Shown: positions 25,043-63,348 of the stretch, piece by piece
How positions within the stretch are numbered: position 1 is the stretch's first letter
Layout: the number at the start of each line of letters is the position of its first letter
From: a virus
Length of the DNA: 64,000 bases
IMG/VR virus record: IMGVR_UViG_3300034682_000176
Location: 124,001-188,000 of that record
Direction: 5' to 3' (one strand)
Position numbers and translations under genes: made by a program
The notes under the pieces: model-generated
The model's input: the letters and a program-made list of their open reading frames with translations, nothing else
What the model was told of the DNA's origin: nothing
Databases searched by the model: none

Positions 25043-25906
25043 ATGGATAACAACTTAACACGAGACGACAAAGACAAAGTAGGCCTTTACATTGTCCGAA
25101 ACAAGACAACTAAAGAGTTCTACCTTGGGAGCGGTCGTCTGGTTCAGAGACTGAAATATCACGAACGCGAATTGACCAACAACCGTCACATAAACCACAA
25201 ACTACAGAAATCTTTCAACAAAAACCCTGATATGGAATTTGTTGCTACAATTATAGATCTAGAAGGTTTGACTGTGGAAGATAATCGAAAACTTGCGTTA
25301 GGGAGTGAGCAAGTTTTTATCGATAAATTTAAAGATAGTTCTCTATTGCTAAATTTAGCTATGAAAGTCGACAACCCTACGTTTGGGACCAATCTTTCAG
25401 CAGACCATAAAGAAAAAATTAGTAAGGGGGTTAAAGAAAGATGGAGCAATATGTCTGATGAAGAAAAGAAATCCCACAGTGAAAAAATAAGTAAGGCTCA
25501 GAACGAACACTGGTCTAAGATACCAAAAGAAGAAAAAGAAGCCAGAATAGAAACGCTTAGACATGCAAATATTGGGGTTCCTCTATCTGACAAACGTAAA
25601 AAAGAAGTAAGTGACTTCTTTAGAGGTAAAAACCTAACCTCCTCTCATAAAGAAAAGATAGGCAACGCGTTAAAAGGGAAACCTAAAAATCCCGATGCTG
25701 TTAAGAACGCAGTTAACGCTAGAAAAGAAAAGGGTTCTTACGGCCCTAATGAAAACCAGATGCGGTTATGCGGACAGCCGGTTACCGTCGATGGTGAATT
25801 TTTTGTTAGTGTGTCCGCATGTGCAAAGGCTAAGAATGTTTCTCGCCAAACAGTCATAAATAGAGTTCGTAACAACAACTTTCCTGGCTGGGCTCAAAAC
25901 TCTTAA
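25043..25906 (+). CDS. GIY-YIG homing endonuclease with NUMOD-type DNA-binding repeats
   Basis: A 287-residue protein starting at ATG 25043 (weak AAGGG site); upstream in-frame codons cross the hairpin and are unlikely coding. Residues 13-95 form the GIY-YIG domain: GLYIV (14-18), YLGSG (27-31) and the catalytic Glu in GSEQ (about 89). Four NUMOD3-like segments follow (SxxHKEKIS and similar, about 120-225), then a C-terminal NUMOD1-like helix-turn-helix (VSRQTVINRV). The gene is visibly A/T-richer with different codon use from all neighbours, marking recent acquisition. It presumably cuts an uninvaded allele near the start of the adjacent structural gene. Confidence 0.9.
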   Translation: MDNNLTRDDKDKVGLYIVRNKTTKEFYLGSGRLVQRLKYHERELTNNRHINHKLQKSFNKNPDMEFVATIIDLEGLTVEDNRKLALGSEQVFIDKFKDSSLLLNLAMKVDNPTFGTNLSADHKEKISKGVKERWSNMSDEEKKSHSEKISKAQNEHWSKIPKEEKEARIETLRHANIGVPLSDKRKKEVSDFFRGKNLTSSHKEKIGNALKGKPKNPDAVKNAVNARKEKGSYGPNENQMRLCGQPVTVDGEFFVSVSACAKAKNVSRQTVINRVRNNNFPGWAQNS

Positions 25907-47179: not shown

Positions 47180-47184
47180 AACAT

Positions 47185-47232
47185 CTCTCTACAGATGGCT
47201 TTGGCTGTCTGTAGAGAGGTATATTTTTTACA
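47185..47232 (+). terminator. Rho-independent terminator
   Basis: A perfect 11-base-pair stem (47185-47195 with 47208-47218) with a GTATATTTTTT tail. Confidence 0.85.
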
Positions 47233-47317: not shown

Positions 47318-47740
47318 ATGACTAAGTTCCGTGTTTGGCTGTACTCGTTGTTTGAGCCTGTCCTGCTCAACTTTCTGATGCTGACCTTTCCTGGTGTCCG
47401 CCAGGATACGGTCCACTCTCTGATCACAGGGGCATCGGAAGAGCCTGAGCAAAAACCACGTGGTGGTGATTTGCAATCGATCTACAACAACGCTCGCAAT
47501 CCGCAAGCGTCGTTTCGGATCTTTCACCTGCGGGTCAAGTACTTTGGATGGGATATCAACCACGCGTTGAAAACACCGGATCGCAAAGATGAGATCCGTG
47601 TGGCTGGGTACGTCTACAATCTGCGGGAAATTTTCAACAACGCTCCCATGAAGAAGATCAGCTACCACACGTTCCACCGACGTGTGACTCAACAAGGCTG
47701 GGACCCTCGTAAGGCGTTGGAAACTCCTCCAAACAAGTAA
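47318..47740 (+). CDS. Two-module helix-turn-helix-like repeat protein
   Basis: A 140-residue protein; ATG 47318 has an AAAAGGAAA site, and upstream in-frame codons run into the terminator. Residues 1-26 are hydrophobic. Two copies of a repeated module follow: 51-87 and 100-137, each shaped as a helix with YN or FN, a short turn, then xxFxxRVxxxGWDxxxALxTP. The same module recurs in four genes at 51379-54012. The module resembles helix-turn-helix segments of phage homing nucleases, so DNA binding is a reasonable hypothesis. The amino-terminal hydrophobic stretch is unique to this member. Confidence 0.75.
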   Translation: MTKFRVWLYSLFEPVLLNFLMLTFPGVRQDTVHSLITGASEEPEQKPRGGDLQSIYNNARNPQASFRIFHLRVKYFGWDINHALKTPDRKDEIRVAGYVYNLREIFNNAPMKKISYHTFHRRVTQQGWDPRKALETPPNK

Positions 47741-47787
47741 ACCACGTTTGTGGCTGTATAGACCATGAAAACCTTGAGTGTCCAGCC

Positions 47788-47835
47788 ATCACCACCGCCT
47801 CCCGATATGGGTAGGCGGTGGTGATATTTGTTTCA
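47788..47835 (+). terminator. Rho-independent terminator
   Basis: A perfect 13-base-pair stem (47788-47800 with 47813-47825) with tail ATTTGTTTC. Confidence 0.87.
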
Positions 47836-47840
47836 TAGGT

Positions 47841-47855
47841 CTTTATATGCGGTGA
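47841..47855 (+). promoter_or_regulatory. Variant phage promoter element
   Basis: CTTTATATGCGGTGA differs at only two positions from the minus-strand variant at 30258-30274. It lies 47 bases upstream of the ATG at 47902 and just after a terminator. Confidence 0.5.
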
Positions 47856-47901
47856 CTGTCTAACGCTGTACAGACCCCTTTTCCACTTTTGAAAGATTGT
47901 T

Positions 47902-48651
47902 ATGCTAGACTTTTTCTCCTTCTCCAAGTTCTTGACGATCTTGAACCTGTGTGCAGCTTTGCTGATTGGTGTTGCCATCGGTGTTTACATTGGTTACCAC
48001 AATGGTCGGCGGTCTCGCAACCATTACGTCGAGAAAGCTTACCGTTACGCCACTGCGGTTGAAGAGTTCAGTCAGTGGTGTGCGCATATGCACCCAGCAT
48101 ACCGTTTGATTGCACGCCAGCTGCGTGCGGTCGGTGAAGGCGAAGCACTCAACGCTGGTTCTCCAGCTGGCTCTGAACCCTGCACTGTGAGTGGTTTGCG
48201 AACACAATTGGAACGCTTGGCCAATCTGTCCAAGAACCCTGAATACATGATCAATGAAGCTTTGCAGAAACTACGCTTCAAGATCGAAGGCATGCAAGAC
48301 CAACGCAAAAACAAGCGTGGTGGTGGAATCGATGCCGGCAGCGCCGTGATCACCAAAACCGACGTGCAAGACGCCATCACATCTGTGGCGCAAGAGCTGT
48401 TCATCAACCGCATGATCGACCAACACACTGCAGCTGAATTGGCTATCCCACAAGACCAGCTGCACCGCTTTGACGCTTTGACCCTACTCAAGCGCAAGGT
48501 CGAACGTCGCACTGGTCAAAACTTCAACTTCATGGGTAAGCGAACTACTTATATTGCTAAGGACCAAGTGTTGGAGCTGATTGATGATGCGCTGGACCAC
48601 GCCAGCTTCAAGCAACCGCAAAATCAGCAAGGTGTGACCCACTCTTCGTAA
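47902..48651 (+). CDS. Membrane-anchored helical protein of unknown function
   Basis: A 249-residue protein with one N-terminal membrane helix (about 10-31, ILNLCAALLIGVAIGVYIGY) followed by a basic Arg-rich stop-transfer (NGRRSRN) and a cytoplasmic helical domain. The Shine-Dalgarno is GAAAG. Residues 135-150 contain QRKNKRGG. It interrupts the repeat-protein cluster. No family recognised. Confidence 0.7.
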   Translation: MLDFFSFSKFLTILNLCAALLIGVAIGVYIGYHNGRRSRNHYVEKAYRYATAVEEFSQWCAHMHPAYRLIARQLRAVGEGEALNAGSPAGSEPCTVSGLRTQLERLANLSKNPEYMINEALQKLRFKIEGMQDQRKNKRGGGIDAGSAVITKTDVQDAITSVAQELFINRMIDQHTAAELAIPQDQLHRFDALTLLKRKVERRTGQNFNFMGKRTTYIAKDQVLELIDDALDHASFKQPQNQQGVTHSS

Positions 48652-48719
48652 AAATTAAATACATTTGCATATTCTGCGAAGAGCAAAACTGCTCCAACCA
48701 TCCACAAGAAGAACACTTC

Positions 48720-48989
48720 ATGAACGAACTGTTTTACCTCATTACCATCGCCTTGATTGTTCGGCTCACGCCAAGCAACGGTGTTGTGGGACTCATCTGC
48801 GACAACCGTGCAGAGTCGTTCAGCTTGCTGCCACAAACTCCCTTTGTGGAGTACGGCATGCAGCAGACTTTCTGCACTTTGTACAACCTTACCCGCTCCC
48901 GTTTTTCGCTTGTCAAAAAGCTTCTTCCTACCAATCTGGGTGATACCGACGCCTCGAAGTCACGAAAGTGTCTTGTGTACGTTTGTTAG
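48720..48989 (+). CDS. Small, possibly membrane-associated protein
   Basis: An 89-residue frame starting at ATG 48720 with an AGAAGAA site. The first 30 residues are hydrophobic; the rest is polar with four cysteines. Codon use is less typical than its neighbours, so it may not be real. Confidence 0.45.
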   Translation: MNELFYLITIALIVRLTPSNGVVGLICDNRAESFSLLPQTPFVEYGMQQTFCTLYNLTRSRFSLVKKLLPTNLGDTDASKSRKCLVYVC

Positions 48990-49060
48990 TTATCTTACAC
49001 CACCACCGTCCAATGTACCCCGTCCATTTCGTGTAAATTGCGAGGACGCACAGTGCTGCA

Positions 49061-49091
49061 CCACCATCCGCTCCTGGAGGGCGGATGGTGG
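49061..49091. terminator. Hairpin between convergent genes
   Basis: A perfect 11-base-pair stem (49061-49071 with 49081-49091) lies between the end of the plus-strand genes and the 3' end of the minus-strand RNA polymerase gene. T-runs are weak. Confidence 0.65.
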
Positions 49092-49113
49092 GCAGACTGG
49101 TTTATGCTTTACT

Positions 49114-50736
49114 TTATGCCGTCATGAAAGCCAAAGTGGCATCCAAGATGTCGGTGCTGTTGCTGAAACGGATCTTGCGTTCGTTGTCCAGGTAGTAGGC
49201 TTTGTTTTTCAAAAGCTTGCGCACCTCTTCGATGGCTTCGTCCGACAGCACAGCTTGCAGCGACATGGTGTCACCGTCAAAGTCAGCACCTAGCAAAGCC
49301 ATGTGAGACTGGTGAACGATCAAGCCGTTCACAAATGTGCTGTCCTTGTCGGGGAAGCTATGAAGCACTTCATCCGTGGGGTTCCACTGTTCATCCAGCT
49401 CCCGCACTTGCTTGTACTTGACTGTGGTGAACAGCTTCATGAACGCCGGGTAGATACCACCATAACCCTGGATGGGGTAGCGGGTCACAAACCCTGGCAA
49501 CTTGCCGGACAAGCGCGCCACACTCAGGTACAGCAGTTCCGTCATGGTGATCGGGGCTACGTGCTTTTTGTCCAAGTGTGCTGGCAGGTCACGGATGTCC
49601 TGGAAGAACTTCACGTACTTGCCGTCGTTGTACAGCAGTCCCATGCAGTGCTTGGAGCGGTTGGTAAACACGGGCAGGTGACGAGTGTCTTGCCGTGCGA
49701 AGTTGGCAATCACGGTCTCCAAGCCGTCGGTGGTCATCCAGCGATCGTAGTCCTTTTGGACGTGGCTGTTGAGGACTTCTTCCTTTTGCCAGGTCTTGAG
49801 GTTGGTCATGTAGGCAAAGGTGTTGTTCTCGCTGAACACCTGTTGCACATAACGGGTACGGATCTCGAACAACGTCTTAGGAGACGCGGCACGCAAGAAC
49901 TGGTGCAGACCGACACCGATGTCGTTCATACAGACCCGGTTGGGGTCAGAGATGTGGGTGGGCTCGTTGACCGAAGCCGTGATCACGTTTCGGGTCGAGT
50001 TGAACGTCTTGCGACTGAGCCACTTCCCCAGGATCAGTTTGTGCTTGCCTTCCAGCAGGCTTTGGATGTAGTCGTACAGCTCCAGAATACTCTTTTGCAG
50101 GTTGCTGTAGACATTGTCGTAGGAGTAAGGTGTGCGTCGTGCGATGTCGGCATCCACCAGCTGAGACTGCGCAAGGATGCGGCGGTAGAAGGTGTTGACT
50201 TCATCTTCTTCCGGCTTACCGTTCGGGCTGATGGTGTAGTCCCGCAAACCGGCCGGCATGACCAACATGTAGCGCAGCAAGTGCTTGTCCTCACCGACGG
50301 CCTTGTTGAAGAACTTGATGTTCTCGGTACGCTTGTCTGAAGCATTGGACTCAAAGCTCAAATCCGCCACGTGCTTCAAAAAGAACGTGTAGCCAGTTTG
50401 TGCGGTGGGTTCGTTGCTCTTTTCAAACTGACGCAGTTTGGGATTCCAGATGGCGGAGATCGAGCCATCCATGATGCCTTTGTAAAAAGACTTCAAGGTG
50501 ATGATGGTCTTGTACACCAAGGGGTGCAAGATGGGGTAGCGCAGATCGATGTAGCCAAACATGCGGGTGCGATGCTCGCTGCCAATCGGACCAAAGATCT
50601 GGGTCGAGAACAAACCATCTTGGTGGAAGTTGCTACCCTGACCAAAGATCTGCAGCTCCTTGATCTGACCCAAGCGCGATAGGTCAGAATCCTTGACACG
50701 CAACAGCGCGATGTTAACCGGTGGGAGTGAAGACAT
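49114..50736 (-). CDS. RNA polymerase beta-prime-like subunit, N-terminal part
   Basis: A 540-residue protein. The catalytic metal-binding motif is visible as GADFDGDTM (Asp485, Asp487, Asp489), matching NADFDGDQM of cellular RpoC. Upstream, ILGKWLSRKTFNSTRNVIT corresponds to the RpoC LxGKRVDxSGRSVI segment, and the RYPI block (RYPIQGYGG) to the region before the active site. The protein stops about 50 residues after the motif, as in the split beta-prime N-terminal subunits of phiKZ-like phages, so a separate C-terminal subunit should exist outside this window. Whether it belongs to the virion or the non-virion polymerase is not decidable here; proximity to virion genes slightly favours virion. 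It has a TGAGAG site. Confidence 0.9.
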   Translation of the reverse strand: MSSLPPVNIALLRVKDSDLSRLGQIKELQIFGQGSNFHQDGLFSTQIFGPIGSEHRTRMFGYIDLRYPILHPLVYKTIITLKSFYKGIMDGSISAIWNPKLRQFEKSNEPTAQTGYTFFLKHVADLSFESNASDKRTENIKFFNKAVGEDKHLLRYMLVMPAGLRDYTISPNGKPEEDEVNTFYRRILAQSQLVDADIARRTPYSYDNVYSNLQKSILELYDYIQSLLEGKHKLILGKWLSRKTFNSTRNVITASVNEPTHISDPNRVCMNDIGVGLHQFLRAASPKTLFEIRTRYVQQVFSENNTFAYMTNLKTWQKEEVLNSHVQKDYDRWMTTDGLETVIANFARQDTRHLPVFTNRSKHCMGLLYNDGKYVKFFQDIRDLPAHLDKKHVAPITMTELLYLSVARLSGKLPGFVTRYPIQGYGGIYPAFMKLFTTVKYKQVRELDEQWNPTDEVLHSFPDKDSTFVNGLIVHQSHMALLGADFDGDTMSLQAVLSDEAIEEVRKLLKNKAYYLDNERKIRFSNSTDILDATLAFMTA

Positions 50737-50881
50737 GTCGAAGCTCTCAAGATAGGATTAAAGGGTTCACAAAATCTAACCGACAGTGTGGTAAGACAAG
50801 TCAGGACTTGTCGAAGTGCTATTGTTTTTTCAAAATTATTGTACCTCTATGATGGGAGACTCGTTTGACCTGTATTTGGTT

Positions 50882-50898
50882 ACATATATAGATCACGA
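50882..50898 (+). promoter_or_regulatory. Phage promoter element
   Basis: ACATATATA, spacer GATC, ACGA; 59 bases before the ATG at 50941, in the region divergent from the RNA polymerase gene. Confidence 0.8.
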
Positions 50899-50940
50899 TG
50901 CGTACTGTCAACCACAACCTTTCACGGAAGGAACCTCTCT

Positions 50941-51120
50941 ATGTCTTCTACCACCACCGTCCCAGCCGCTTCCGGCTCTCAAGCGCTCAGCGCCTACGAA
51001 ACCCTCTACCAACTCCATGTAGAGAAACCGCAACCTTCAGCGGAACCCAAAAACGTTGCGGCGACCCAACAGCCGCGCGCCGTCCTGCGTCGTCGCTATC
51101 GTCGTACGGTGACCCGCTAA
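50941..51120 (+). CDS. 59-residue protein with Arg-rich C-terminus
   Basis: A short frame, ATG 50941 with a GGAAGGAAC site, directly downstream of a consensus promoter element. The N-terminus is Ser/Thr/Ala-rich; the last 15 residues are strongly basic (VLRRRYRRTVTR). The dedicated promoter and good site support it despite its size. The basic tail suggests nucleic-acid or membrane binding; function unknown. Confidence 0.65.
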   Translation: MSSTTTVPAASGSQALSAYETLYQLHVEKPQPSAEPKNVAATQQPRAVLRRRYRRTVTR

Positions 51121-51378
51121 TTCCTGGGGATGTAATTCCTATAGCAACATAACCTATCAGTAAGCCTCAGGACTCTTGTCCGGGCTGTGATATCACGCTG
51201 CGTTTAACACGCAGACCACATTGACAGTACGCGCACCGGGGTGCTTGACTCTTACGCAGGTCTGCACCCCACCCATCACAATCGAGCATCCGTATAGCGA
51301 CTATGTCGGTCGTCGGAGTCTAGGTTGTTTCACTGTTTAGAGGGCAGTGAGCCGTTAGTAACAAAAAGGAGTATCAAC
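51121..51378 (+). other. Gene-free leader with hairpins
   Basis: This 258-base stretch lies between the Arg-rich peptide gene and the repeat-protein genes. It has a CTGCG...CGCAG hairpin with a seven-base loop (51198-51214) and a GGGGTGC/GCACCCC hairpin (51238-51270). No promoter consensus. Possibly a structured leader or small RNA downstream of the 50882 promoter. Confidence 0.5.
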
Positions 51379-52137
51379 GTGAGAGCACCGGTTAATCAAG
51401 AGCTGATTAAAAGCTATCATCAATTCAACACCAAGAACGTGCCGCTGAGCGTGTTCTTGATGCGTGTCAACAATCTGCGCTGGGACGTCAAAAGAGCTGG
51501 CGAAACCCCTTACGTACCACGAACGGGCGGGCTTGTTGCACAATACAAAGAACTCTACGATCGCATCGAATCTCCAACTGTGGGGTTCGATGTGTTCTGC
51601 CGCCGAATGCGCAACGGCCGTGATGTCGAAGAAGCAGCCAAAGCTCCGAAGATTGAACCTTCTGAGCTGTACAGCTACTACCACCAATACCAAGACAAAC
51701 CAGCGGTAGGGTACACCACCTTCTTTAACCGCGTGGTGTCTTTGAATTGGGAGCGCATCAAAGCCATCACCACACCACCGACGCGCAAAATGAAACCGCG
51801 CAAAGAGGTACGTTCCAACACGTACCTGGCCATGTGGTTCAACAAAAACATTGAACGCGCCAAAGTCGATTGGAGCTGTTTTTCCCAACGTGTCTTCAAA
51901 GGCGGGTGGGACAAAGAAAGAGCTCTGACGACACCTTCCATGGCCGAGAATGAATCTCAGCTGCGCGCCTTCTACAACCAACACCCTGACTGTCCAGTCA
52001 ACTACATGACGTTCCACCGTCGTGTGTATGCCCTGGGGTGGGATATGCAGCGTGCAATCTCTACCCCAGTTCGTGACAACACCCGTTCGCAGCGTGAGCG
52101 CGTCGTTGTGAGTTCCCGACCATCCAAGTACAACTAA
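51379..52137 (+). CDS. Five-module helix-turn-helix-like repeat protein
   Basis: A 252-residue protein with a GTG start at 51379 after a strong AAAAAGGAGT site. Nearly the whole chain is five modules of about 45 residues, each with a helix, a short turn, xxFxxRVxxxxWDxxxAxxTP and a variable linker. The fourth and fifth are the clearest (FSQRVFKGGWDKERALTTP; FHRRVYALGWDMQRAISTP). The second is degenerate (RMRNGRDVEEAAKAP). The C-terminal 25 residues are basic. It forms a tight cluster with the next three genes (gaps 16-23 bases). Sequence-specific DNA binding is a hypothesis. Confidence 0.75.
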   Translation: MRAPVNQELIKSYHQFNTKNVPLSVFLMRVNNLRWDVKRAGETPYVPRTGGLVAQYKELYDRIESPTVGFDVFCRRMRNGRDVEEAAKAPKIEPSELYSYYHQYQDKPAVGYTTFFNRVVSLNWERIKAITTPPTRKMKPRKEVRSNTYLAMWFNKNIERAKVDWSCFSQRVFKGGWDKERALTTPSMAENESQLRAFYNQHPDCPVNYMTFHRRVYALGWDMQRAISTPVRDNTRSQRERVVVSSRPSKYN

Positions 52138-52160
52138 TCCACCCCGTAAAGCGTATAGTC

Positions 52161-52628
52161 ATGACCACTACTTTGCGTATTTTGAAGACCGCTCCTTACA
52201 TCACACCCATCGAACAACTGTTGCGTGAGTATCAAGAATTTGCCAACCTGAGTCTTCCCAAAGACGTCTACATCAGCCGTGGTGGTGTTCAAGCCAAAAC
52301 ACCTCAGTTGAGTGCTGCCAGCTACATCCCTGACAGTCTGGAAGACCGTTCGCTACTCAAGCAGTTTGAACAGATCGAAGGACGTGTCGTAGATTTTGGC
52401 ACCTTCCGCCGCCGTGTGCGCGGCGGTATGGAAACCATGCCAGCAGCCAAGACTCCGCTGCGCAAACGCAATCGTTCGTCCTACCAGAGCCACAACAAAA
52501 GTGGCATTCGTCTGGCGTACGAGCATGCTCCATCGACTCCGGCCGTTCCATTCAGCACGTACTACGTGCGTGTGAAAGTGCTGAGCTGGCCTATCCAAAA
52601 AGCTCTGTACACCCCTTTGCATCATTGA
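52161..52628 (+). CDS. Helix-turn-helix-like repeat protein (two clear modules, one degenerate)
   Basis: A 155-residue protein. Clear modules end with FRRRVRGGMETMPAAKTP and YYVRVKVLSWPIQKALYTP; the first 50 residues look like a decayed module. GW is replaced by GM and SW, so this member is more diverged. The Shine-Dalgarno is weak, so translation may be coupled to the upstream repeat gene. Confidence 0.7.
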   Translation: MTTTLRILKTAPYITPIEQLLREYQEFANLSLPKDVYISRGGVQAKTPQLSAASYIPDSLEDRSLLKQFEQIEGRVVDFGTFRRRVRGGMETMPAAKTPLRKRNRSSYQSHNKSGIRLAYEHAPSTPAVPFSTYYVRVKVLSWPIQKALYTPLHH

Positions 52629-52644
52629 CCCCTTTGTTTTTGAA

Positions 52645-52992
52645 ATGAGTATGTTGGACCAACCCACACCACAAATCGACAAGACCACTTTTAAGTCTCC
52701 GAAAGACATTCGGGAACAACTGGAGCAAATCTATCGTGACCATCCCAATCCACCGATTCCATACTCGGTGTTTTACTCGCGTGTGCAGTACCTGGGTTGG
52801 GACGTCATCAGTGCGTTGACCACGGCCATTGCCAAGGAGTTCAGCCATCGCCCACGTGGCGAGATCCGTCAGTTCTACGACGACAATGTAGCGCGCGCTC
52901 AAGTCAACCTGAACGTATACAACGGTCGGGTGCGTATGGGTGGTTGGGACAAAGAAAAAGCGTTGACGACACCTGTTGGCGCTCGTGCTTGA
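52645..52992 (+). CDS. Two-module helix-turn-helix-like repeat protein
   Basis: A 115-residue protein with modules FYSRVQYLGWDVISALTTA and YNGRVRMGGWDKEKALTTP, each preceded by a helix with hydrophobic and Tyr/Phe positions. A second ATG at codon 3 is an alternative start; no strong site is seen. It lies 16 bases after the previous repeat gene. Confidence 0.72.
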   Translation: MSMLDQPTPQIDKTTFKSPKDIREQLEQIYRDHPNPPIPYSVFYSRVQYLGWDVISALTTAIAKEFSHRPRGEIRQFYDDNVARAQVNLNVYNGRVRMGGWDKEKALTTPVGARA

Positions 52993-53010
52993 TATAAAAA
53001 GGAGTTTCAG

Positions 53011-54012
53011 ATGAGTCAGAAAAAACCATCTCAGTACAACCGTGATGAGTTGATCAACTACTACAACAAAGTAGACAACCCAGCGGTACCGCTGGGTCGC
53101 TTCTTGCAACGGGTCAGCCAAAGCGGCTGGACCTTGGAGCGTGCAGCCACTGCTACGGCTTACCGCAGCGGTGGTACTGCCCACCGCTGTACCGAGTACT
53201 ACAACGCAGTTCCTCCAGAGGAGCGCGGTGTGACGTTCGATACGTTCTACAGCCGTGTGATGCGGGGGTGGGACATGCACCGCGCTGCCCGTGAAAAGCC
53301 ACGGGAAAAAGCAGCACCCTACCGTGAGTTCTACGACAAACACCCCAACCCCCAAGTGGACTTCGCCATTTTTTATGTGCGGGTCCACTCCAACAATTGG
53401 GAACTAGAGCGCGCCATTACCACACCGGTCGTACCTATGGCCGATGGTCGTGACTGGTGCCAGGAACGGGTGTTCTACGAAGCCAACCGCCATCGCGCCA
53501 AGGTTGATCTGGCCTTGTTCCACAACCGCGTGAAAATGCGCAAGTGGGACATGGAAACTGCATTGGTCACACCGAAGCGTGACAGCGCAACGCGAAACGA
53601 AAGCCTGCGCAGCTACTTTGACAACCACCCCAATCCACAAGTCAGCTACAAGACTTTTGTCAGCCGTGCGGGTCGTGGTGGTTGGACCAAAGAGTCAGCC
53701 ATCACAGCCCAGCCACGTCCAGTGACAGCCCGTCGTAACGGCGCCAAGTCGGACATGCCTTTGACACCTCGTCAGCAACGCTTTGCCGATGCGCGGGAGT
53801 TCTTCAAAGAGCACAAGGACTTGGCGGTTGTGGATGTGCAAACGTTCTTGCGTCGTGTGTGTTCAGACAACTGGGACCCAATGCAGGCCATCACTACCGA
53901 ACTGGCGGACACCAAACCCACACGGGCTGAAACTGGTGCAATGACCAATTCGTTGCAATCGGCATTCATGAACTTCTGTCGTCCGGCTGTGTCGTCATCA
54001 GCTCACTCATAA
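53011..54012 (+). CDS. Six-module helix-turn-helix-like repeat protein
   Basis: A 333-residue protein with an AAAAGGAGTTT site. Six modules are visible: LQRVSQSGWTLERAATAT, FYSRVMRGWDMHRAAREKP, FYVRVHSNNWELERAITTP, FHNRVKMRKWDMETALVTP, FVSRAGRGGWTKESAITAQ and FLRRVCSDNWDPMQAITTE. Three carry an upstream (Y/F)xxHPNPQVxF-type segment. Linkers vary in length. The largest member of the family and the end of the repeat-gene cluster; followed by a terminator. Confidence 0.75.
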   Translation: MSQKKPSQYNRDELINYYNKVDNPAVPLGRFLQRVSQSGWTLERAATATAYRSGGTAHRCTEYYNAVPPEERGVTFDTFYSRVMRGWDMHRAAREKPREKAAPYREFYDKHPNPQVDFAIFYVRVHSNNWELERAITTPVVPMADGRDWCQERVFYEANRHRAKVDLALFHNRVKMRKWDMETALVTPKRDSATRNESLRSYFDNHPNPQVSYKTFVSRAGRGGWTKESAITAQPRPVTARRNGAKSDMPLTPRQQRFADAREFFKEHKDLAVVDVQTFLRRVCSDNWDPMQAITTELADTKPTRAETGAMTNSLQSAFMNFCRPAVSSSAHS

Positions 54013-54088: not shown

Positions 54089-57000
54089 ATGGCCGGAAAG
54101 AAAACTAAAAAGGACGGGGTCGACGAGTTGGATTTTGGTGATCTTGACGATCTGGATATGGATGAGGTCAATTTTGACGATTCCAGTCTTGATGATCCCG
54201 ACCGCGCTCCGTCTCGTTCTGAAGTTGCCAAGGACATGGCCAAACAAGCCAGCACAGGCTTTGTGGAATCCATGGCCAAGAAGACAGCAGAAAAGGCACT
54301 GCCGCCGGAGTACGCCAGCAACTATAGCGATGTCATGGACCTGGCAGGATTTGCCACTGACGTCGTGGATCGCAATAAGCAGCAGCTGGACAAATCCATG
54401 TTCAAGCTGGGCAAAGAAGTCAAGAAGCTGTTGCCCATGCAAATTGGGTTGCTGGACAAATACCTCGCCAAAAAGGAAGAGGAGTTTGCCGAGTTCAAAC
54501 AGCAGTCCGAAGAAGAGATGCGCAATGCCTCGATTTCTTCGGAGCTCAGCTCGATCTTTGACCAACAGCTCGATATCCAAAAGGCACTGGAAGCTAAGCG
54601 TTCTGCAGAGGGTCGCGTTGAGACCAAAGAGCGCCTGATCGCTACCAAGCTCAATTTGGATGTACTGCGTAGCATCGATGCCAATGTGGCAACCAGTGCT
54701 GCGTTTGAGACGCAAATCTCCAAGCAGTTCTTCCGCAAGTCGTTGGAGTTGCAGTACAAGTCGTTCTTCGTGCAAGCAGACATGCTGCGCACGATGCGGG
54801 ACAGCTACAAGGGCTTTACGCTGTTGTTGACCAACATCGAAAAGAACTCGGCGCTGCCTGACTACGTCAAACTCAAGAACACTGAGCGACTGGCTGACAT
54901 TGCTCGCACCAACGCGACACAAGCGGTATATTCCCAATTGTTCAGCCGCAACAAGTACATCCAAACAGTCAAGGACCGTTTAGGGCGTGCTGTCAACGAC
55001 AAGGTCACATCGATCACCGACTCCATGGGAGACATCACTGATGCCCTGTCGATGATGAACGATGGTGGCAAAGGTGCGGGTTTGCGTGCACTGGGTGGTA
55101 TTGCTGCTGGTATTGGTGGTGACACTTTGGGTGAGATGGCAGGTACTCGCTTGGGAGGTAAACTGCAAGAGCGCTTGAAGGACAACAAGTATCTCAACAC
55201 CGGCGCCAACTACCTCAAAGCCTTTGCAGCTTCTCCAGCCACGCTGATGCGGTCTTTGCGCGACAAGGCGGCCGAGCGTGAACAAGAAGCGGAAGGCCGT
55301 GGCAGCTGGAGCTCTAAGCTGTACGGCATGGCCCGTGCAGGTTTGGATTTGACAGCCGAAGATCGTCCTAACATCGGTGTCAAACGGGACAATTACCTGG
55401 ACCACAACCAGCCAGCCATCTTTGACAACAAGGCGCACCGTTCGATCACGGAAGCCATTCCCATGCTGCTGTCGCGTATCTTGCAAAAGAACAGCGACAT
55501 GAACCAGATGTACTACCAGGCTAACCAACACATCGTTAGCCCACCCAACTCACCGTTGCTGATGTACGACTACCAAGGTCGTAAGCTGGACAGCGGCGAA
55601 AGCATCAAAGCCAAACTGCAAGACAGTGTGTTCTCCCAGCGTTCGACCAAGAACCGCACGACGGCCATTGCCTCGAACACGCTGACCAAGTCCAAGGCCA
55701 ACATCTCCCGCAATACGGCGATGACCAAGGACCAAAAGAAACAGCTCAACGCCACCTTGAACGCCAAAGGCGCGCAAGACGCATTGGCTGAGTACTACGC
55801 CCGAGCATCGTCGATCAAGGGGATCAACCTCGATCACGACACACTCATCGTCAATGCCGGTAAGAACAAAGACTTGGCGGCCTTGATCAACGCTAACCCT
55901 CAACTTGCAAAGGTCATTGATGTACTTCGCCAAAATTCAGACAAAGACAATTCATACATCGACCAAAGCCTTGCTGACGTCCAGAACCCTTATCCTATCG
56001 AGGCGATTAAAAACCTCTTTACAGATTCCTCGAAACTCACCAGTGCCAAGCAACCTAACCTTGTCACGGACAAAAACGCAAACGCCATCTCCAAAGCGCT
56101 GAGTCGTTTCATCCTCAACCGTGGTGAAGACATCACGGCCAACAACATCTTGTCGCGGCTGGCATTCAGCTACTTCCGACCTGATGAGTTCAATGAGCAA
56201 GTCAAGCAAAACATCGCGGTGTTGATCGACGATGTCAAACGCATCACCTCGCACGGCGATATCGTTTTGCAAAGCTCACTGATGGCCTTGTTGGCACTGG
56301 TCAACCAGTCGCTCAAAGCCAACTTCGAGATTGACCCTGCGGTCTTTAGCAATATCCGCGAACTGTACCCCGACTTTGTCAAGCAGTCCCGACTGACCAT
56401 TGAAAATCTGGCCGAAGGCAAGATAGATGCTGGTGTCGACGAGTACATGAACTTCATGGACATCAAGGACGCTACCAAGGTGTCTAACCGCGAAGTCGGT
56501 TTGATTCGTGAGCAGGTGTTTGCGACTTCTGGGGTTGATCGCATTCTCTCTCGCGCCAAGAGCAAGGGTGAAGAGTTCAAGAAAGGACTCACAGCGGCCA
56601 GCAGTTCTCCGACAGCCATGGCTGAGTTCCTGCTGCAACAAGCCAAGAGCTTCAAGTCAACGGTCGCCGCCTCGCTGACCAAGACGTCCAATGAAATCCA
56701 GCAAGGATTTACCAAGCTGGGTAACCACGTCGATACCTTGGTCAAGGAAGGTTCTGCCAAAGCCCTGGGGTTGATGGTCCAAGAACTCTCTGCCCTGGAT
56801 CAAAAACTGGAAAACTACATCGTGCTGACACAGAACGATTTGGCCCAGCGTACTGAAGAGCTGCAAAACGCCAAAGACAGCGTGGTTGAAGTCACTACCC
56901 AAACCAAGCTGCAGCGTGCCGCCACCCGTGAACTTGAACTGTTTGTGCGCATGGGGGAGAAGAACCTCAACGCACTGGTCAAGCTGCGCGAGACCGTCCA

Positions 57001-57172
57001 ACGCAACACCCAGTCCATCCGCCAGATGGCACAAAACCCAACCACTCCTCCAACCGAAGCTTTGCGCAAAATGGGCACGGCCATCCGTGACGTGTTGGAC
57101 CAAGCCAAGAAACAGTTGGCAGAGCTGGAAGCCGCAGGGGCTTCTGAGCGCGCGGCCGCAGTAGCGGCGTGA
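54089..57172 (+). CDS. Large coiled-coil virion protein, possible tape-measure-like
   Basis: A 1027-residue protein with an N-terminal acidic segment (residues ~11-45, Asp/Leu-rich), extended helical regions (100-280 and 780-1000) and a central Gly/Ala stretch (about 330-360). No catalytic motif. Size, helical content and the immediate downstream peptidoglycan-hydrolase virion gene suggest a tail-tube or internal virion protein. The leader is A/T-rich with an AAGGGG site. Role inferred. Confidence 0.68.
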   Translation: MAGKKTKKDGVDELDFGDLDDLDMDEVNFDDSSLDDPDRAPSRSEVAKDMAKQASTGFVESMAKKTAEKALPPEYASNYSDVMDLAGFATDVVDRNKQQLDKSMFKLGKEVKKLLPMQIGLLDKYLAKKEEEFAEFKQQSEEEMRNASISSELSSIFDQQLDIQKALEAKRSAEGRVETKERLIATKLNLDVLRSIDANVATSAAFETQISKQFFRKSLELQYKSFFVQADMLRTMRDSYKGFTLLLTNIEKNSALPDYVKLKNTERLADIARTNATQAVYSQLFSRNKYIQTVKDRLGRAVNDKVTSITDSMGDITDALSMMNDGGKGAGLRALGGIAAGIGGDTLGEMAGTRLGGKLQERLKDNKYLNTGANYLKAFAASPATLMRSLRDKAAEREQEAEGRGSWSSKLYGMARAGLDLTAEDRPNIGVKRDNYLDHNQPAIFDNKAHRSITEAIPMLLSRILQKNSDMNQMYYQANQHIVSPPNSPLLMYDYQGRKLDSGESIKAKLQDSVFSQRSTKNRTTAIASNTLTKSKANISRNTAMTKDQKKQLNATLNAKGAQDALAEYYARASSIKGINLDHDTLIVNAGKNKDLAALINANPQLAKVIDVLRQNSDKDNSYIDQSLADVQNPYPIEAIKNLFTDSSKLTSAKQPNLVTDKNANAISKALSRFILNRGEDITANNILSRLAFSYFRPDEFNEQVKQNIAVLIDDVKRITSHGDIVLQSSLMALLALVNQSLKANFEIDPAVFSNIRELYPDFVKQSRLTIENLAEGKIDAGVDEYMNFMDIKDATKVSNREVGLIREQVFATSGVDRILSRAKSKGEEFKKGLTAASSSPTAMAEFLLQQAKSFKSTVAASLTKTSNEIQQGFTKLGNHVDTLVKEGSAKALGLMVQELSALDQKLENYIVLTQNDLAQRTEELQNAKDSVVEVTTQTKLQRAATRELELFVRMGEKNLNALVKLRETVQRNTQSIRQMAQNPTTPPTEALRKMGTAIRDVLDQAKKQLAELEAAGASERAAAVAA

Positions 57173-57188
57173 TTGTCCTACCCTGACC

Positions 57189-57242
57189 CACCCACCGGTC
57201 CCGTAAAGACTGGTGGGTGTGGTGGTCTTTTTTCTTTTTAGG
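57189..57242 (+). terminator. Hairpin terminator or attenuator
   Basis: A 12-base-pair stem with one wobble (57189-57200 with 57208-57219) followed by GGTGGTCTTTTTTCTTTTT, overlapping the leader of the next gene. Its Shine-Dalgarno is just beyond the T-run, so the two virion genes may be differentially expressed. Confidence 0.75.
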
Positions 57243-57249
57243 AGAAGGT

Positions 57250-60200
57250 ATGAATCCCGCAGAACTTATCCAGCAATTTCAGAACATCACGACAGGTGCC
57301 CTCAAGCAAAATGAGAATACCGGAGTGGTCAAGTTTCTGCGCGCAACGGTCAAGACTCTGGAGGGTGTGACCAAGAAGATCGATGGGTTCTTGAAGAGTA
57401 AGAACATCGATGTCTCGGAACGCTTGAAACAGTTGTCGGAATCGACCACTGGGGCGGCCGATAAAGCGCGCGGTGTCTTGGGCAGTTACAAGGACGAGAT
57501 CAAAAACAAGGGCTTTCGTGGTTTCCTCAAGTCCAAAGCAAATGACGTGCAGTCCATGTTGACTGAGAAGTTTGCTTCGGACACAGAAACCAGTGGAGCA
57601 CCCCCTGACGATCAAAACCCCTCCATCATTGCCAAACTCCAGGATTCGATCAACACCCTCACTGACTCGATCGAAAACCTTGCCAAGAAGTCCTTGCCTG
57701 CCGGTTTTGCTGGTGGTGCAGAAGACGTTGGTGTCACCACTTCCCGCAGCTCCAACTCCAGCGATTACGCCGATGCTTTGCGCAAAGCCAAAGAACGTGC
57801 CGAAACCCGCAAGAAAGAGATCGAGCAAGAGAAAGAAGCCGTCCGCAACAAGAACAAACCAGGAGGTGCCAAACAACCCAGTTGGCTCTCTAAGATCTTG
57901 GGTGCTGTGGGGCGTATTGGTCCTTTCATTGTCGGTGGTCTGGGTCGCGTAATTACCGCCGCTATTCCTGCCTTGGTAGGATTGACCGGAAAGATGATGG
58001 GTGGTATCCTGACCCGACTGACCCCTAAGTTGGCAGGATTGATCGCACGAGGTACCAGCAAACTGGTGACTGGTGGTGCCAAGATGGCCGGACGTGGTCT
58101 GTGGGGTGCTGCCAAGTTCGCTGCGACCCGTGCTGCACCCGCTTTGCTGGCTGGAGCCAAAGCCTTGGGTGGTGCCTTGGTGACTACTGTTGGTACAGCG
58201 GGTCTGGCCATCGGTGGTGCTGTGGTCGGTGCAGGTCTGCTCATCTACGGTGGCTACAAGCTCTACAAGTACCTCAACCGCAACAACGTTGCCAACGATA
58301 TCTTCGGACAGCTGACCCGTCTGCGTCTGTTGATGTACGGTTTCAATGACACCAAGAAAGAGCACTACTACCGGCTGATGGAGCTGGAGATGATGATGAA
58401 AGACTACGTCCAGGTCAAAGACGGACGGGTCTCGATGGTCAAGCTCGACACCAAACTCAAAGACAAGGTCAAGGACTTGTTCGAGGTCAAAGCGGACGAA
58501 AAGGAAAAGTACGCCATCTTGAACACGTGGTTTGCACGCCGATTTATGCCCGCTTTCAAGGCGTTCATGGATGCGTTCATGCCGCTGGGTCCGAACCTGT
58601 ACCTGGACAAGATCGACAAGCTGACAAACGACCAAGTGTTGACGTTGGCTTCCAAGTTGATCGCTCCCACTACCATCTACGACATCAAGCAAGTGCCGAC
58701 GTTTGACGATCCGAAAACCACGGTGGTCAAGCAAGAAGTCGACGACATGCTGGCGGCTATCCGCAACAAGGCCAAAACTGGCTCGACCCAACTCAACGGC
58801 CAAGATCCACAAAAGGTCAAGGAAAACGTAGACAAACAAACTGGCGCTGCTTCGACGATTGCAACTGCCAAGGCCAACCAAATCACCCAAGCAGGTATTC
58901 CTAAGGGTGGTGCGGGTGAATCTACCCCCCAAGCTTCGATGAACCGTTTTGCCCCAGGCGGTGCTAAATCCCTGGCCAAGATGGAAACCCCGAACCAAGA
59001 AGGTGAAGTCCCTGTGCGAGACACACCGGGTCGCCCACCAGTGCCTATCCCTTCTGGAGCACCTTCAGAAGCCACCAAACTCAACGTTGCGCCGGGTAAA
59101 CTGCAACCGGGCGACAAGTCGTTGCAAGGCATCACCATTGGTCCTAAGGGGGACAGCAGCCGACTGATGGGTCTGCACCCGAAAGTCTTCTCGCTGTTTA
59201 CCGGCATGGCCAAGGAGTTCAACACCCTCACAGGCAAGAACATCACGGTCAACGAATCGTTCCGCACGTACGACGACCAGATGGCTTTGCGCCAGAAGTA
59301 CCCTGGCAAGGCTGCCAAACCCGGCAACTCGATCCACGAATTTGGCATGGCGCTGGACGTCAACAGTCCTGAGGCCAACCTGCTTGATGAAATGGGTCTG
59401 CTGCGTAAGTACGGTTTCACTCGCCCTGTGGGTGGGGAAACATGGCACTTGGAGCCAGCTGGTGTGGCTGTCAACCCTCAAGCCGCTAAGTCCAACCCCC
59501 AAGCCCGTGAGCAAGCCCTGGATTCTTCGCCAGGTCGCGGTGGTGGTGGGTATGGTGCTTCCAAGTCCACACCTCTGGGTAAACGTAACCTGGAACTGCA
59601 AGCCAAGTTGTTTAGCGAAGGCTCGGCCTCTACGGTCGATACGGCTGCTATCAGCGATGGCGTCAAAGACACTCCATCCTTCTCCGGTCCTGGTAATATC
59701 CCAGCTGCCTCGACCTCCAACACCTTTGCTGCCACCAACTCGGGTGGGCAGACATCGCCATCCTCCGGCGGTGGTTATGCGGGGTCGGTCGCTAAGACTT
59801 CGACCCAAAACTCCTTGAGTCGCTCGGGTGTCAGTGTCACAGCTGCCAACAGTCTGGATACCCCTTCGGCAAAATCTTCCAATGCAAACTTGGACCCCGG
59901 TGCTATTGGTACCAAAGATCTGTCTCCTGCCCAAGCCGTGCGTAAGGCGGCCAGCGTGGTGGGAATGGACCCTGAAGCCATGGTGACCTTTGCCAAGCTG
60001 GAATCCAGCCTGGACCCTAAAGCCGGTGCTTCGACCAGCTCCGCCAAGGGCTTGTTCCAAATCACCAAACCCACTTGGAACGGACTGCTTCCCAAGGAAG
60101 GTCCTAAGTACAACGTTCCTGAAAATGCGGACATCTTCGATCCGTACTACAACTCGGTCATTGGTATCTCGTACGCCAAGCAAAATGCCGAGTCGGTGCT

Positions 60201-60954
60201 GCCGTTGGGTCGCCAAGCTGGCTTGCCCGATGAAGTCTCTTTGTACCTGGCTCACCACTTTGGACCTTCGGGTTCTAAGCGCTTGATCCAAGCATACATG
60301 AGCAACCCCAACCAACCAACCCAAGACGCTGTCTCTAGCTCGACGTTTAGTGCCAACCAAGCAGCTTTGGCTGGCAAGACCGTGGGTCAGTACATCCAAG
60401 GCTTGATGACCAAGATGGGCAACGCTGCCAATACGCCTGAAACAGCCTACAAGGGCATGAAAGGCTATAACCAAGGTCAGAGTACCAATAGCGAGTCGAA
60501 CGCCGCTACAGACGCTTCTGCGGACGTTCAAACGTCCAGCGTGTACACCCCTTCGGCCAAGCCTGTTTCTTTGCCACCACCCGGTGCGCGGATGCAGCGC
60601 TCCGAGTTGCCGACGCCGGCACCAACGACGTCTTACCCAGTCCAACAACCTACTGCACGACCAACGATGCTGCCTCCACAGCCATCGATGACGCAGTCCA
60701 TGGACCCCACCAACGAGATCTTGACCAACCAACTGAGTGTGCTGACTGACATCAAGCGCATCTTGGAAGGCTTTGCGGGTCAGGTACCTCGCTCAGCAGC
60801 GACGCCGACGACCCCTGTTGTACCCAATGCGACACAGGGCACTCCGGCCGCTACTCCCACTGCACCTGCACAACCCCAATCGCCCATTGCGGCTCCTATG
60901 AACCGAACTCCTAGCAGTTCTTCGGTGAGCATGTCTCGCCGGCAAATGACGTAA
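57250..60954 (+). CDS. Virion protein with M15 peptidase and lytic transglycosylase domains
   Basis: A 1234-residue protein; ATG 57250 with a TAGGAG site is chosen over an in-frame start inside the terminator. Order: helical N-terminus (1-200), Gly/Ala hydrophobic region (about 217-344) with possible membrane helices, Ser/Pro linker, then a VanY-like M15 carboxypeptidase domain with SxHxxGxAxD (His696, Asp703) and WHLE (His733, Glu735). A Ser/Thr/Gly linker leads to an SLT-type lytic transglycosylase with catalytic Glu918 (AKLESSLDP) and GLFQI. The C-terminus is Pro/Thr/Ser-rich. It would open peptidoglycan during DNA entry. phiKZ gp181 is a tail-associated transglycosylase, so this is a functional analogue with an added M15 domain. 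Confidence 0.88.
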   Translation: MNPAELIQQFQNITTGALKQNENTGVVKFLRATVKTLEGVTKKIDGFLKSKNIDVSERLKQLSESTTGAADKARGVLGSYKDEIKNKGFRGFLKSKANDVQSMLTEKFASDTETSGAPPDDQNPSIIAKLQDSINTLTDSIENLAKKSLPAGFAGGAEDVGVTTSRSSNSSDYADALRKAKERAETRKKEIEQEKEAVRNKNKPGGAKQPSWLSKILGAVGRIGPFIVGGLGRVITAAIPALVGLTGKMMGGILTRLTPKLAGLIARGTSKLVTGGAKMAGRGLWGAAKFAATRAAPALLAGAKALGGALVTTVGTAGLAIGGAVVGAGLLIYGGYKLYKYLNRNNVANDIFGQLTRLRLLMYGFNDTKKEHYYRLMELEMMMKDYVQVKDGRVSMVKLDTKLKDKVKDLFEVKADEKEKYAILNTWFARRFMPAFKAFMDAFMPLGPNLYLDKIDKLTNDQVLTLASKLIAPTTIYDIKQVPTFDDPKTTVVKQEVDDMLAAIRNKAKTGSTQLNGQDPQKVKENVDKQTGAASTIATAKANQITQAGIPKGGAGESTPQASMNRFAPGGAKSLAKMETPNQEGEVPVRDTPGRPPVPIPSGAPSEATKLNVAPGKLQPGDKSLQGITIGPKGDSSRLMGLHPKVFSLFTGMAKEFNTLTGKNITVNESFRTYDDQMALRQKYPGKAAKPGNSIHEFGMALDVNSPEANLLDEMGLLRKYGFTRPVGGETWHLEPAGVAVNPQAAKSNPQAREQALDSSPGRGGGGYGASKSTPLGKRNLELQAKLFSEGSASTVDTAAISDGVKDTPSFSGPGNIPAASTSNTFAATNSGGQTSPSSGGGYAGSVAKTSTQNSLSRSGVSVTAANSLDTPSAKSSNANLDPGAIGTKDLSPAQAVRKAASVVGMDPEAMVTFAKLESSLDPKAGASTSSAKGLFQITKPTWNGLLPKEGPKYNVPENADIFDPYYNSVIGISYAKQNAESVLPLGRQAGLPDEVSLYLAHHFGPSGSKRLIQAYMSNPNQPTQDAVSSSTFSANQAALAGKTVGQYIQGLMTKMGNAANTPETAYKGMKGYNQGQSTNSESNAATDASADVQTSSVYTPSAKPVSLPPPGARMQRSELPTPAPTTSYPVQQPTARPTMLPPQPSMTQSMDPTNEILTNQLSVLTDIKRILEGFAGQVPRSAATPTTPVVPNATQGTPAATPTAPAQPQSPIAAPMNRTPSSSSVSMSRRQMT

Positions 60955-62796: not shown

Positions 62797-63348
62797 ATGC
62801 CGCTGTACTATACCGGGGTGGGAAGCCGTGAGACACCACCTGAGATCTTGACCGTGATGACGCGGCTGGGTGTCTACCTGGCGCAGCGTGGACTGGTGTT
62901 GCGCTCGGGTGGTGCCGATGGTGCTGATGCGGCATTTGAGGAAGGTTGCGACAAAGTCAACCGCAAACTCAAGCAGATCTTCTTGCCCTGGAACAACTTC
63001 AACAAACGCACTGACCGTGAGTCTGGGGTGATTGTCAAAGTTGACCCCCATGTGGAAAAGCAGGCAGCCAAGATTGCTGAAGAGATTCACCCTGCTTGGA
63101 ACACTGCCTTGACCCAAGGCGCCAAGAAGTTGCACACCCGCAATGTCTTCCAAGTCTTGGGTCCGACCATCAACGAGCCTTCCAACTTTTTGGTCGGTTA
63201 TGCGACTTTGGACAAGAACGGCCAGCCCAAAGGCGGCACCCGTACCGCCATCAAACTGGCAGAGAAGTTCAACGTCCGCAACTACAACCTGTTCAAGCAA
63301 GAAGACTTGGACCGCGTGTTGAAGCTGCTGGAGGATTCCGGCATTTGA
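62797..63348 (+). CDS. SLOG superfamily (DprA-like) Rossmann-fold protein
   Basis: A 183-residue protein with the SLOG nucleotide-binding pattern: VGSRETP (residues 8-14) and RSGGADGADAAFEEG (36-50), equivalent to the GSR and GGAxGxD segments of DprA/LOG proteins. Unlike DprA it has no extra SAM or winged-helix domain. Such stand-alone proteins occur in many large phages, where the ligand is unknown. The Shine-Dalgarno is GAAGAGGAA. It precedes phuZ but a promoter lies between them. Confidence 0.78.
   Translation: MPLYYTGVGSRETPPEILTVMTRLGVYLAQRGLVLRSGGADGADAAFEEGCDKVNRKLKQIFLPWNNFNKRTDRESGVIVKVDPHVEKQAAKIAEEIHPAWNTALTQGAKKLHTRNVFQVLGPTINEPSNFLVGYATLDKNGQPKGGTRTAIKLAEKFNVRNYNLFKQEDLDRVLKLLEDSGI

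What the first reader, a model, noticed from the sequence alone, without database searches (positions are those of the whole stretch)
47318..54012. Family of proteins made of tandem helix-turn-helix-like modules
Five genes (47318, 51379, 52161, 52645, 53011) encode proteins built mainly from one repeated unit of about 40-50 residues, roughly 17-18 copies in total (2, 5, 2-3, 2 and 6). The unit is a helix, a short turn and then xxFxxRVxxxGWDxxxAxTTP, joined by variable linkers. A very similar motif (VSRQTVINRV...GW) ends the homing endonuclease at 25043, where it is a NUMOD1-type DNA-binding helix-turn-helix. The arrays have no attached nuclease or other domain. A plausible idea is modular DNA binding, either sequence-specific or for genome compaction; another is a protein scaffold. 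I do not know a described phage family with this architecture.
Basis: partly seen in the sequence, partly recalled or inferred. Interest (0 to 1): 0.88.

Follow-up and report, generated by a model that had tools for sequence, protein, structure and literature searches.

The report
Nuclease-free arrays of homing-endonuclease modules
A giant phage carries five genes that encode strings of two to six small helical modules, the same modules that phage homing endonucleases use to find their DNA target but without the cutting part, so they are probably modular DNA-binding proteins recruited from selfish genes.

Summary
Five intact genes (47318-47740, 51379-52137, 52161-52628, 52645-52992, 53011-54012, all +) hold 2+5+2+2+6 = 17 copies of one ~43-residue module. 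Profiles that never saw the protein being tested find every module (50-199 bits; best shuffle under 9). The module is not new: it is the C-terminal module of phage HNH homing endonucleases (profile-profile probability 98.1%) and the unit of PHROG 1065, an uncharacterised phage family of nuclease-free three-module proteins. A profile built only from outside modules picks out exactly these five genes in the window (E 5e-30 to 2e-6). AlphaFold2 gives three helices per module (pLDDT 93), joined as beads on a string. Helix 2 has an invariant Arg and an almost acid-free outward face; all five proteins have pI 9.3-10.1. No nuclease domain is present. What is unusual is the scale (up to six modules per protein; at most four in any other protein found here) and the setting: a phiKZ-like 225-kb phage whose sampled kin lack the module, with array genes on both sides of a virion RNA polymerase gene. 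Most likely these are domesticated DNA-binding or repressor proteins derived from homing endonucleases. DNA binding is inferred, not shown.

The parts
47318..47740 (+). array gene 1, 140 aa, 2 modules (residues ~50-89 and ~102-139); N-terminal ~45 residues do not match the module
   Evidence: PHROG 1065 E 2.7e-8
51379..52137 (+). array gene 2, 252 aa, 5 modules; GTG start behind a strong Shine-Dalgarno (aaaaaggag)
   Evidence: PHROG 1065 E 3.9e-30
52161..52628 (+). array gene 3, 155 aa, 2 modules plus a probable degenerate N-terminal third
   Evidence: PHROG 1065 E 3.2e-4
52645..52992 (+). array gene 4, 115 aa, 2 modules (second closest to module 4 of genes 2 and 5)
   Evidence: PHROG 1065 E 7.3e-9
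53011..54012 (+). array gene 5, 333 aa, 6 modules; strong Shine-Dalgarno (aaaaaggag)
   Evidence: PHROG 1065 E 2.5e-32
49114..50736 (-). context: virion RNA polymerase beta'-type subunit (phiKZ gp180-like) lying between array gene 1 and array genes 2-5
   Evidence: 37% identity over the whole length to phiKZ-like phages; Rpb1 domains weakly in Pfam
54089..57172 (+). context: first part of the gp181-like virion protein, normally adjacent to the polymerase gene
   Evidence: PHROG 3201 E 4.8e-53; relatives
25043..25906 (+). related: GIY-YIG homing endonuclease whose C-terminal helix-turn-helix is a distant relative of the module
   Evidence: PHROG 314 E 2.2e-19; I-TevI_DNA-bd E 0.097; foreign composition

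Best explanation
The five genes encode nuclease-free arrays of the helix-turn-helix-type DNA-binding module of phage homing endonucleases. Each module is an independently folded three-helix bead. Helix 2 is the recognition helix and the short third helix (GWDxxxALTTP) caps the fold. Several beads on flexible linkers bind a long stretch of DNA, giving affinity and specificity by addition. The genes were probably derived from homing-endonuclease DNA-binding regions, duplicated, and kept by the phage as sequence-specific DNA-binding proteins, most likely transcriptional repressors or site-occupying proteins. Shown here: the repeats, homology to endonuclease modules, absence of a nuclease, the predicted fold, and native codon usage. 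Inferred: DNA binding, additive recognition, and a regulatory role.
For: Module homology: hhalign probability 98.1%, E 6.9e-14 against C-terminal modules of HNH enzymes and 96.9% against modules of other arrays; an outside-only profile finds exactly the five genes; PHROG 3377 (HNH endonuclease) is matched only at positions 104-193 of 196, the module part. A four-module relative hits helix-turn-helix and homing-endonuclease DNA-binding profiles: I-TevI_DNA-bd E 5.9e-7 and HTH_28 E 4.3e-6, both above cutoff, and I-HmuI_NUMOD-like E 0.005, below cutoff. Fold: three helices per module, pLDDT 93.4; six beads with flexible linkers, pTM 0.27. Recognition face: Arg invariant in 41 of 41 modules; outward helix-2 positions hold 2 acidic of 85 residues against 80 of 517 at other non-core positions, Fisher p 0.0003. 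All five pI 9.3-10.1 against median 6.2 for 42 other window proteins. Native codon usage, and strong Shine-Dalgarno sites in two genes, unlike the foreign GIY-YIG gene. Precedents: CapR, a homing-endonuclease-type DNA-binding domain without nuclease that acts as a repressor (PMC10448857); I-TevI binds an operator as autorepressor through its DNA-binding domain (PMC2988022).
Against: No significant match to any solved structure by sequence or fold, so the helix-turn-helix assignment rests on intermediates and on a prediction with a 14-row alignment. Basic residues at the outward helix-2 face are not enriched in the window modules (p 0.27); only the lack of acids is significant. Outside modules show the basic enrichment (p 7e-5). 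No binding site, promoter or regulatory target was identified; no informative DNA repeats outside the coding modules. The Pfam hits above cutoff come from one relative, not from the window proteins.
Confidence: 0.62

Rival explanations
1. Homing shield: the arrays occupy the sites of homing endonucleases of competing phages near the virion RNA polymerase gene and block cutting (a nuclease-free immunity protein).
For: Array genes lie on both sides of the polymerase gene; a phiPA3 HNH homing endonuclease cuts a virion RNA polymerase gene of phiKZ (PMC11620839), so this kind of locus is a known battleground. The modules come from the same enzyme class.
Against: The known target is another polymerase subunit (gp178). 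No rival enzyme or shared site was found. Free-standing arrays elsewhere do not sit at such polymerase genes.
Confidence: 0.15
2. Targeting subunits of a split endonuclease: the arrays recruit a nuclease encoded elsewhere to its target.
For: The same modules are fused to HNH nucleases in other phages.
Against: No HNH enzyme of this family elsewhere in the genome: PHROG 3377 matches only array modules; neighbouring ORFs show no nuclease domain. The GIY-YIG enzyme has its own DNA-binding tail and foreign composition.
Confidence: 0.08
3. Low-specificity nucleoid or genome-packaging proteins.
For: All five proteins are basic, with many beads on flexible linkers.
Against: Outward helix-2 positions are highly variable between modules, which suits differing specificity better than uniform backbone binding; sampled phiKZ-like relatives appear to do without the genes.
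Confidence: 0.08
4. Protein-protein scaffold or interaction repeats, for example like the helical repeat domain of the Ltp superinfection-exclusion protein.
For: Ltp (4eqq) appears among the PDB fold matches (ranks 2 and 4), at insignificant E 4.5-7.5.
Against: No Ltp-family Pfam match at E up to 5; sequence homology to endonuclease modules is strong.
Confidence: 0.05
5. Decaying remnants of homing endonucleases that lost their nuclease domains, without a function.
For: Some modules are eroded (module 2 of gene 2 and module 1 of gene 3 lack the Trp; N-terminus of gene 3).
Against: Five intact reading frames, conserved core with Arg and Ala in 17 of 17 modules, native codon usage, strong ribosome-binding sites in two genes.
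Confidence: 0.08

Closest known systems
PHROG 1065 (phage family, unknown function; core members = three tandem modules)
   Same: same module, free-standing, no nuclease; all five window proteins match, E 3.2e-4 to 2.5e-32
   Different: core members examined have three modules each; here 2-6 modules per protein and five paralogous genes; the 'G' before the helix-2 'I/V' that is common in outside modules is absent here
PHROG 3377 / phage HNH endonucleases with C-terminal modules (Bacillus phages phiAGATE, Moonbeam, 035JT004)
   Same: one or two of the same modules at the C-terminus
   Different: window proteins have no HNH domain
I-TevI DNA-binding domain (PF20987) and I-HmuI NUMOD-like domain (PF22083)
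   Same: a four-module relative matches I-TevI_DNA-bd above its cutoff (E 5.9e-7) and I-HmuI_NUMOD-like below its cutoff (E 0.0049); beads-on-a-string DNA reading is described for this enzyme class (PMC2988022)
   Different: no direct Pfam match from the window arrays; a third helix with GWDxxxALTTP follows here
CapR repressor of Vibrio phage satellites (PMC10448857)
   Same: homing-endonuclease-type DNA-binding domain working without a nuclease; related nuclease genes have repeated DNA-binding domains described as beads on a string
   Different: zinc-finger domain, a different fold; carried by a satellite, not by the phage
PVL ORF-50-like family (PF07768)
   Same: weak fold matches and weak profile matches of relatives
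   Different: window proteins do not match it in Pfam

Membership tests
PHROG 1065 | sequence match to the family profile | tested here: met
   all five proteins, E 2.7e-8, 3.9e-30, 3.2e-4, 7.3e-9, 2.5e-32
PHROG 1065 | free-standing tandem modules, no catalytic domain | tested here: met
   no nuclease in Pfam, PHROGs (module part only) or NCBIfam; core members likewise
PHROG 1065 | three modules, full-length match to the 192-position profile | tested here: not met
   2, 5, 2, 2, 6 modules; matches are partial and repeated
HNH homing endonuclease (PHROG 3377) | C-terminal module | tested here: met
   matches at profile positions 104-193 for three of five proteins; hhalign 98.1%
HNH homing endonuclease (PHROG 3377) | HNH catalytic domain | tested here: not met
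   no match to the HNH part of the profile anywhere in the genome
NUMOD1 / I-TevI-type DNA-binding helix-turn-helix | direct match of the window proteins to the Pfam models | tested here: not met
   no hit up to E 5
NUMOD1 / I-TevI-type DNA-binding helix-turn-helix | homology through an intermediate | tested here: met
   L074 four-module array matches I-TevI_DNA-bd E 5.9e-7 and HTH_28 E 4.3e-6 and PHROGs 314, 3377, 1065
helix-turn-helix DNA-binding fold | consecutive helices with an exposed, basic or acid-free recognition helix | tested here: met
   AF2 helices 2-10, 19-27, 33-38, pLDDT 93; acid-free outward face p 0.0003, but no basic enrichment in the window modules, p 0.27
helix-turn-helix DNA-binding fold | structural match to a solved helix-turn-helix protein | tested here: inconclusive
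   no PDB match below E 4 for the two-module model, whose hinge between modules may defeat the search
helix-turn-helix DNA-binding fold | binds DNA | not testable with these tools
   needs an experiment
Ltp-type superinfection exclusion repeats | match to the Ltp Pfam family | tested here: not met
   no Ltp-family hit up to E 5

The most novel reading that the evidence does not exclude
A jumbo phage has expanded homing-endonuclease reading modules into a set of long, nuclease-free, additive DNA readers (up to six beads) that act together as a site-specific regulatory or anti-homing system around its virion RNA polymerase gene: a naturally modular DNA-binding scaffold distinct from TALE, zinc-finger and PUF arrays.
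Probability: 0.15. Interest if true: 0.8.

Novelty: new variant of a known kind. Interest (0 to 1): 0.45.

Why it matters
Nuclease-free arrays of homing-endonuclease modules form a functionally blank phage family (PHROG 1065, some members named 'HNH endonuclease' although they have no HNH domain). The window holds the largest expansion seen here. If the arrays bind DNA additively, they are a clear example of selfish-gene parts turned into phage regulators, and the 17 variant modules in one genome form a natural set for working out how such modules read DNA. It would also give this family a first testable function.

Tried and rejected
Close relatives of the arrays in IMG/VR by protein pattern (P0005, P0002): none. 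Module search in 29 records from the polymerase scan (nothing rang in the controls either, so weak) and by profile in their loci: none. Sequence searches of the PDB with three module profiles: nothing significant; the VPS28 match (E 0.016) was treated as chance. Foldseek on the two-module model: PDB nothing significant; viral predicted structures best E 0.0066 with probability 0.98, likely the same family rather than independent support. A chimallin candidate from phage KTN4 (the ORF before the non-virion polymerase subunit) in the own genome: no match, which shows nothing at this divergence, so nucleus formation is not claimed. DNA repeats as possible operators: essentially module-coding repeats. 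Sigma-70 promoter scan: below expectation. Considered and rejected: a known non-DNA-binding repeat family (no Pfam or NCBIfam match); chance repeat; frame artefact (intact frames, native codon usage).
Full report
What is there. The window is bases 124001-188000 of a 224,810-base virus record. The virus is phiKZ-like: the gene at 49114-50736 (-) is a virion RNA polymerase beta'-type subunit, 37% identical over its full length to Pseudomonas phages of the phiKZ group, and 54089-60954 matches the large phiKZ-type tail/peptidoglycan-hydrolase family PHROG 3201. In and around this junction lie five + strand genes that consist mainly of one repeat of about 43 residues.

Is the repeat real? I cut 17 modules by hand (2, 5, 2, 2, 6) and aligned them. 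To avoid circularity I built profiles without the protein under test: all 17 modules are recovered, with 50-199 bits per protein against at most 8.7 bits in 1000 shuffles each. No further copy is found elsewhere in the genome. The consensus is [helix 1, LxxxYYxxHP]-[xV-(D/N/S/P)-(Y/F/L)-x-T-F-x-x-R-V-xxx-G-W-D]-[xxxA-(L/I)-T-T-P]; Arg and Ala are invariant.

What is the module? None of the five proteins has a meaningful Pfam match. PHROGs gives two answers: PHROG 1065, unknown function, with E down to 2.5e-32, and PHROG 3377, HNH endonuclease, matched only over its last 90 positions. Reading members of both explains this. HNH endonucleases of Bacillus phages phiAGATE, Moonbeam and 035JT004 consist of an HNH domain followed by two copies of the module; many IMG/VR HNH enzymes carry one copy at the C-terminus. 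PHROG 1065 proteins such as Acetoanaerobium phage XAO14002, Paenibacillus phage Wanderer gp65, Geobacillus and Pectobacterium phage proteins and IMG/VR virus proteins are three modules and little else, although some are annotated as HNH endonuclease. Profile-profile comparison of the 17 window modules with 14 endonuclease modules gives probability 98.1%, E 6.9e-14. A profile built from 24 outside modules only finds exactly the five window genes among 447 ORFs (E 4.6e-30, 1.0e-24, 4.5e-18, 1.0e-12, 1.7e-6); the next ORF is the GIY-YIG homing endonuclease at 25043, at an insignificant E 0.19, matched at its C-terminal helix-turn-helix.

Is it a helix-turn-helix? A four-module relative (L074) matches the I-TevI DNA-binding domain (E 5.9e-7, above the curated cutoff), HTH_28 (E 4.3e-6, above cutoff) and I-HmuI NUMOD-like (E 0.005, below cutoff); other relatives weakly match HTH_10 and HTH_23 at the same residues. 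AlphaFold2 on two neighbouring modules with 14 aligned module pairs gives pLDDT 93.4 and helices 2-10, 19-27, 33-38 in the first module and the same pattern in the second. The full six-module protein is six such units with loose relative placement (pLDDT 73.7, pTM 0.27). Positions of helix 2 that face away from the core hold 2 acidic residues of 85, against 80 of 517 at other non-core positions (p 0.0003); their net charge is +0.18 per residue, against -0.08 and -0.05 on helices 1 and 3 (which positions face outward was assigned from the conservation pattern, not from coordinates). Basic residues as such are not enriched there in the window modules (p 0.27) but are in outside modules (p 7e-5). 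The five proteins have pI 9.3-10.1; among 42 other window proteins the median is 6.2 and four reach 9.3. No solved structure matches by sequence or fold, so this is a strong inference, not proof. Matches to predicted viral structures are mostly unnamed phage proteins, with HNH endonucleases and PVL ORF-50-like proteins lower in the list; they are not independent evidence.

How unusual is it? In the loci I gathered, modules occur as HNH plus one or two copies, as free-standing sets of two, three or four, and fused to other domains. Five and six per protein occur only here, and so does a set of five genes. This survey is limited: it rests on pattern and tblastn scans, so longer arrays may exist unseen. 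In 391 bacterial genomes of one class only six held the PHROG 1065 match at 1e-6. In the records brought in by the polymerase search no module was found, though the second search had no positive control.

Setting. In phage KTN4 and in five IMG/VR relatives the gp180-like polymerase gene and the gp181-like gene are divergent neighbours with at most about 110 bases between them. Here 3,352 bases separate them and hold array genes 2-5 and a possible 59-codon ORF. The polymerase gene has also lost its usual neighbour: the homologue of KTN4_219 lies about 43 kb away at 217.7-221.7 kb. Array gene 1 lies on the other side of the polymerase gene. Homing-endonuclease genes are reported to bracket essential phage genes and to sit at boundaries of genetic exchange (PMC10448857), and a phiPA3 intron endonuclease sits in a virion RNA polymerase gene and cuts its phiKZ homologue (PMC11620839). 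The arrangement therefore fits descent from such elements, by inference. The array genes now have codon usage close to the rest of the phage (0.07 to 0.18 log units per codon against 0.16 to 0.48 for reference genes), whereas the GIY-YIG gene is plainly foreign (-0.43; GC 39%). So the arrays look like old residents with intact frames and, in two cases, strong ribosome-binding sites; I read this as retention rather than recent invasion. Modules 2.4, 4.2 and 5.4 resemble each other more than most (2.4-4.2 42%, 4.2-5.4 41% identity), which suggests that genes 2, 4 and 5 share a multi-module ancestor.

Mechanism. Best reading: additive DNA recognition by beads on a string, as described for the DNA-binding regions of T4 intron endonucleases (PMC2988022), without the cutting domain. 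Two precedents show that such parts can regulate: I-TevI represses its own gene by binding an operator (PMC2988022), and CapR, an unrelated zinc-finger domain shared with homing endonucleases, represses phage capsid expression from a satellite (PMC10448857). My estimates: identity as an endonuclease-type module about 0.9; DNA binding about 0.75; regulatory or site-occupying role about 0.5. The shield, split-enzyme, compaction, scaffold and decay readings are given as rivals.

Verdict. The module and the nuclease-free architecture are already present, though uncharacterised, in databases. The expansion to 17 modules in five genes beside a virion RNA polymerase gene is a new variant.

Noticed in passing
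25043-25906 (+): GIY-YIG homing endonuclease with GC 39% and GC3 0.36 in a genome of about 52% GC, codon score -0.43: a recent foreign insertion.
   Followed up: partly
54089-57172 and 57217-60954 (+): The gp181-like virion protein is one long ORF (about 1,900-2,400 residues) in phiKZ-like relatives but two ORFs here, matching the N-terminal and the later parts of PHROG 3201.
   Followed up: partly
49114-50736 (-) and genome 217.7-221.7 kb: Two virion RNA polymerase genes that are adjacent in KTN4 and most sampled relatives are about 43 kb apart in this genome.
   Followed up: partly
50941-51120 (+): Possible small gene of 59 codons with a Shine-Dalgarno-like site and an Arg-rich C-terminus, upstream of array gene 2.
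   Followed up: no
47183-47220 (+): Terminator-like hairpin with a 17-pair stem followed by T-rich DNA, just upstream of array gene 1.
   Followed up: no
L107:3492-4007, L061:1456-1950: Phage proteins of three modules without any HNH domain are annotated in public records as HNH endonuclease: probable misannotation.
   Followed up: yes
L064:12293-12820: One module directly followed by a clear HTH_23 domain (E 1.2e-9) in the same reading frame.
   Followed up: no
62797-63348 (+): DprA-like recombination mediator protein, PHROG 768 E 8.7e-64.
   Followed up: no
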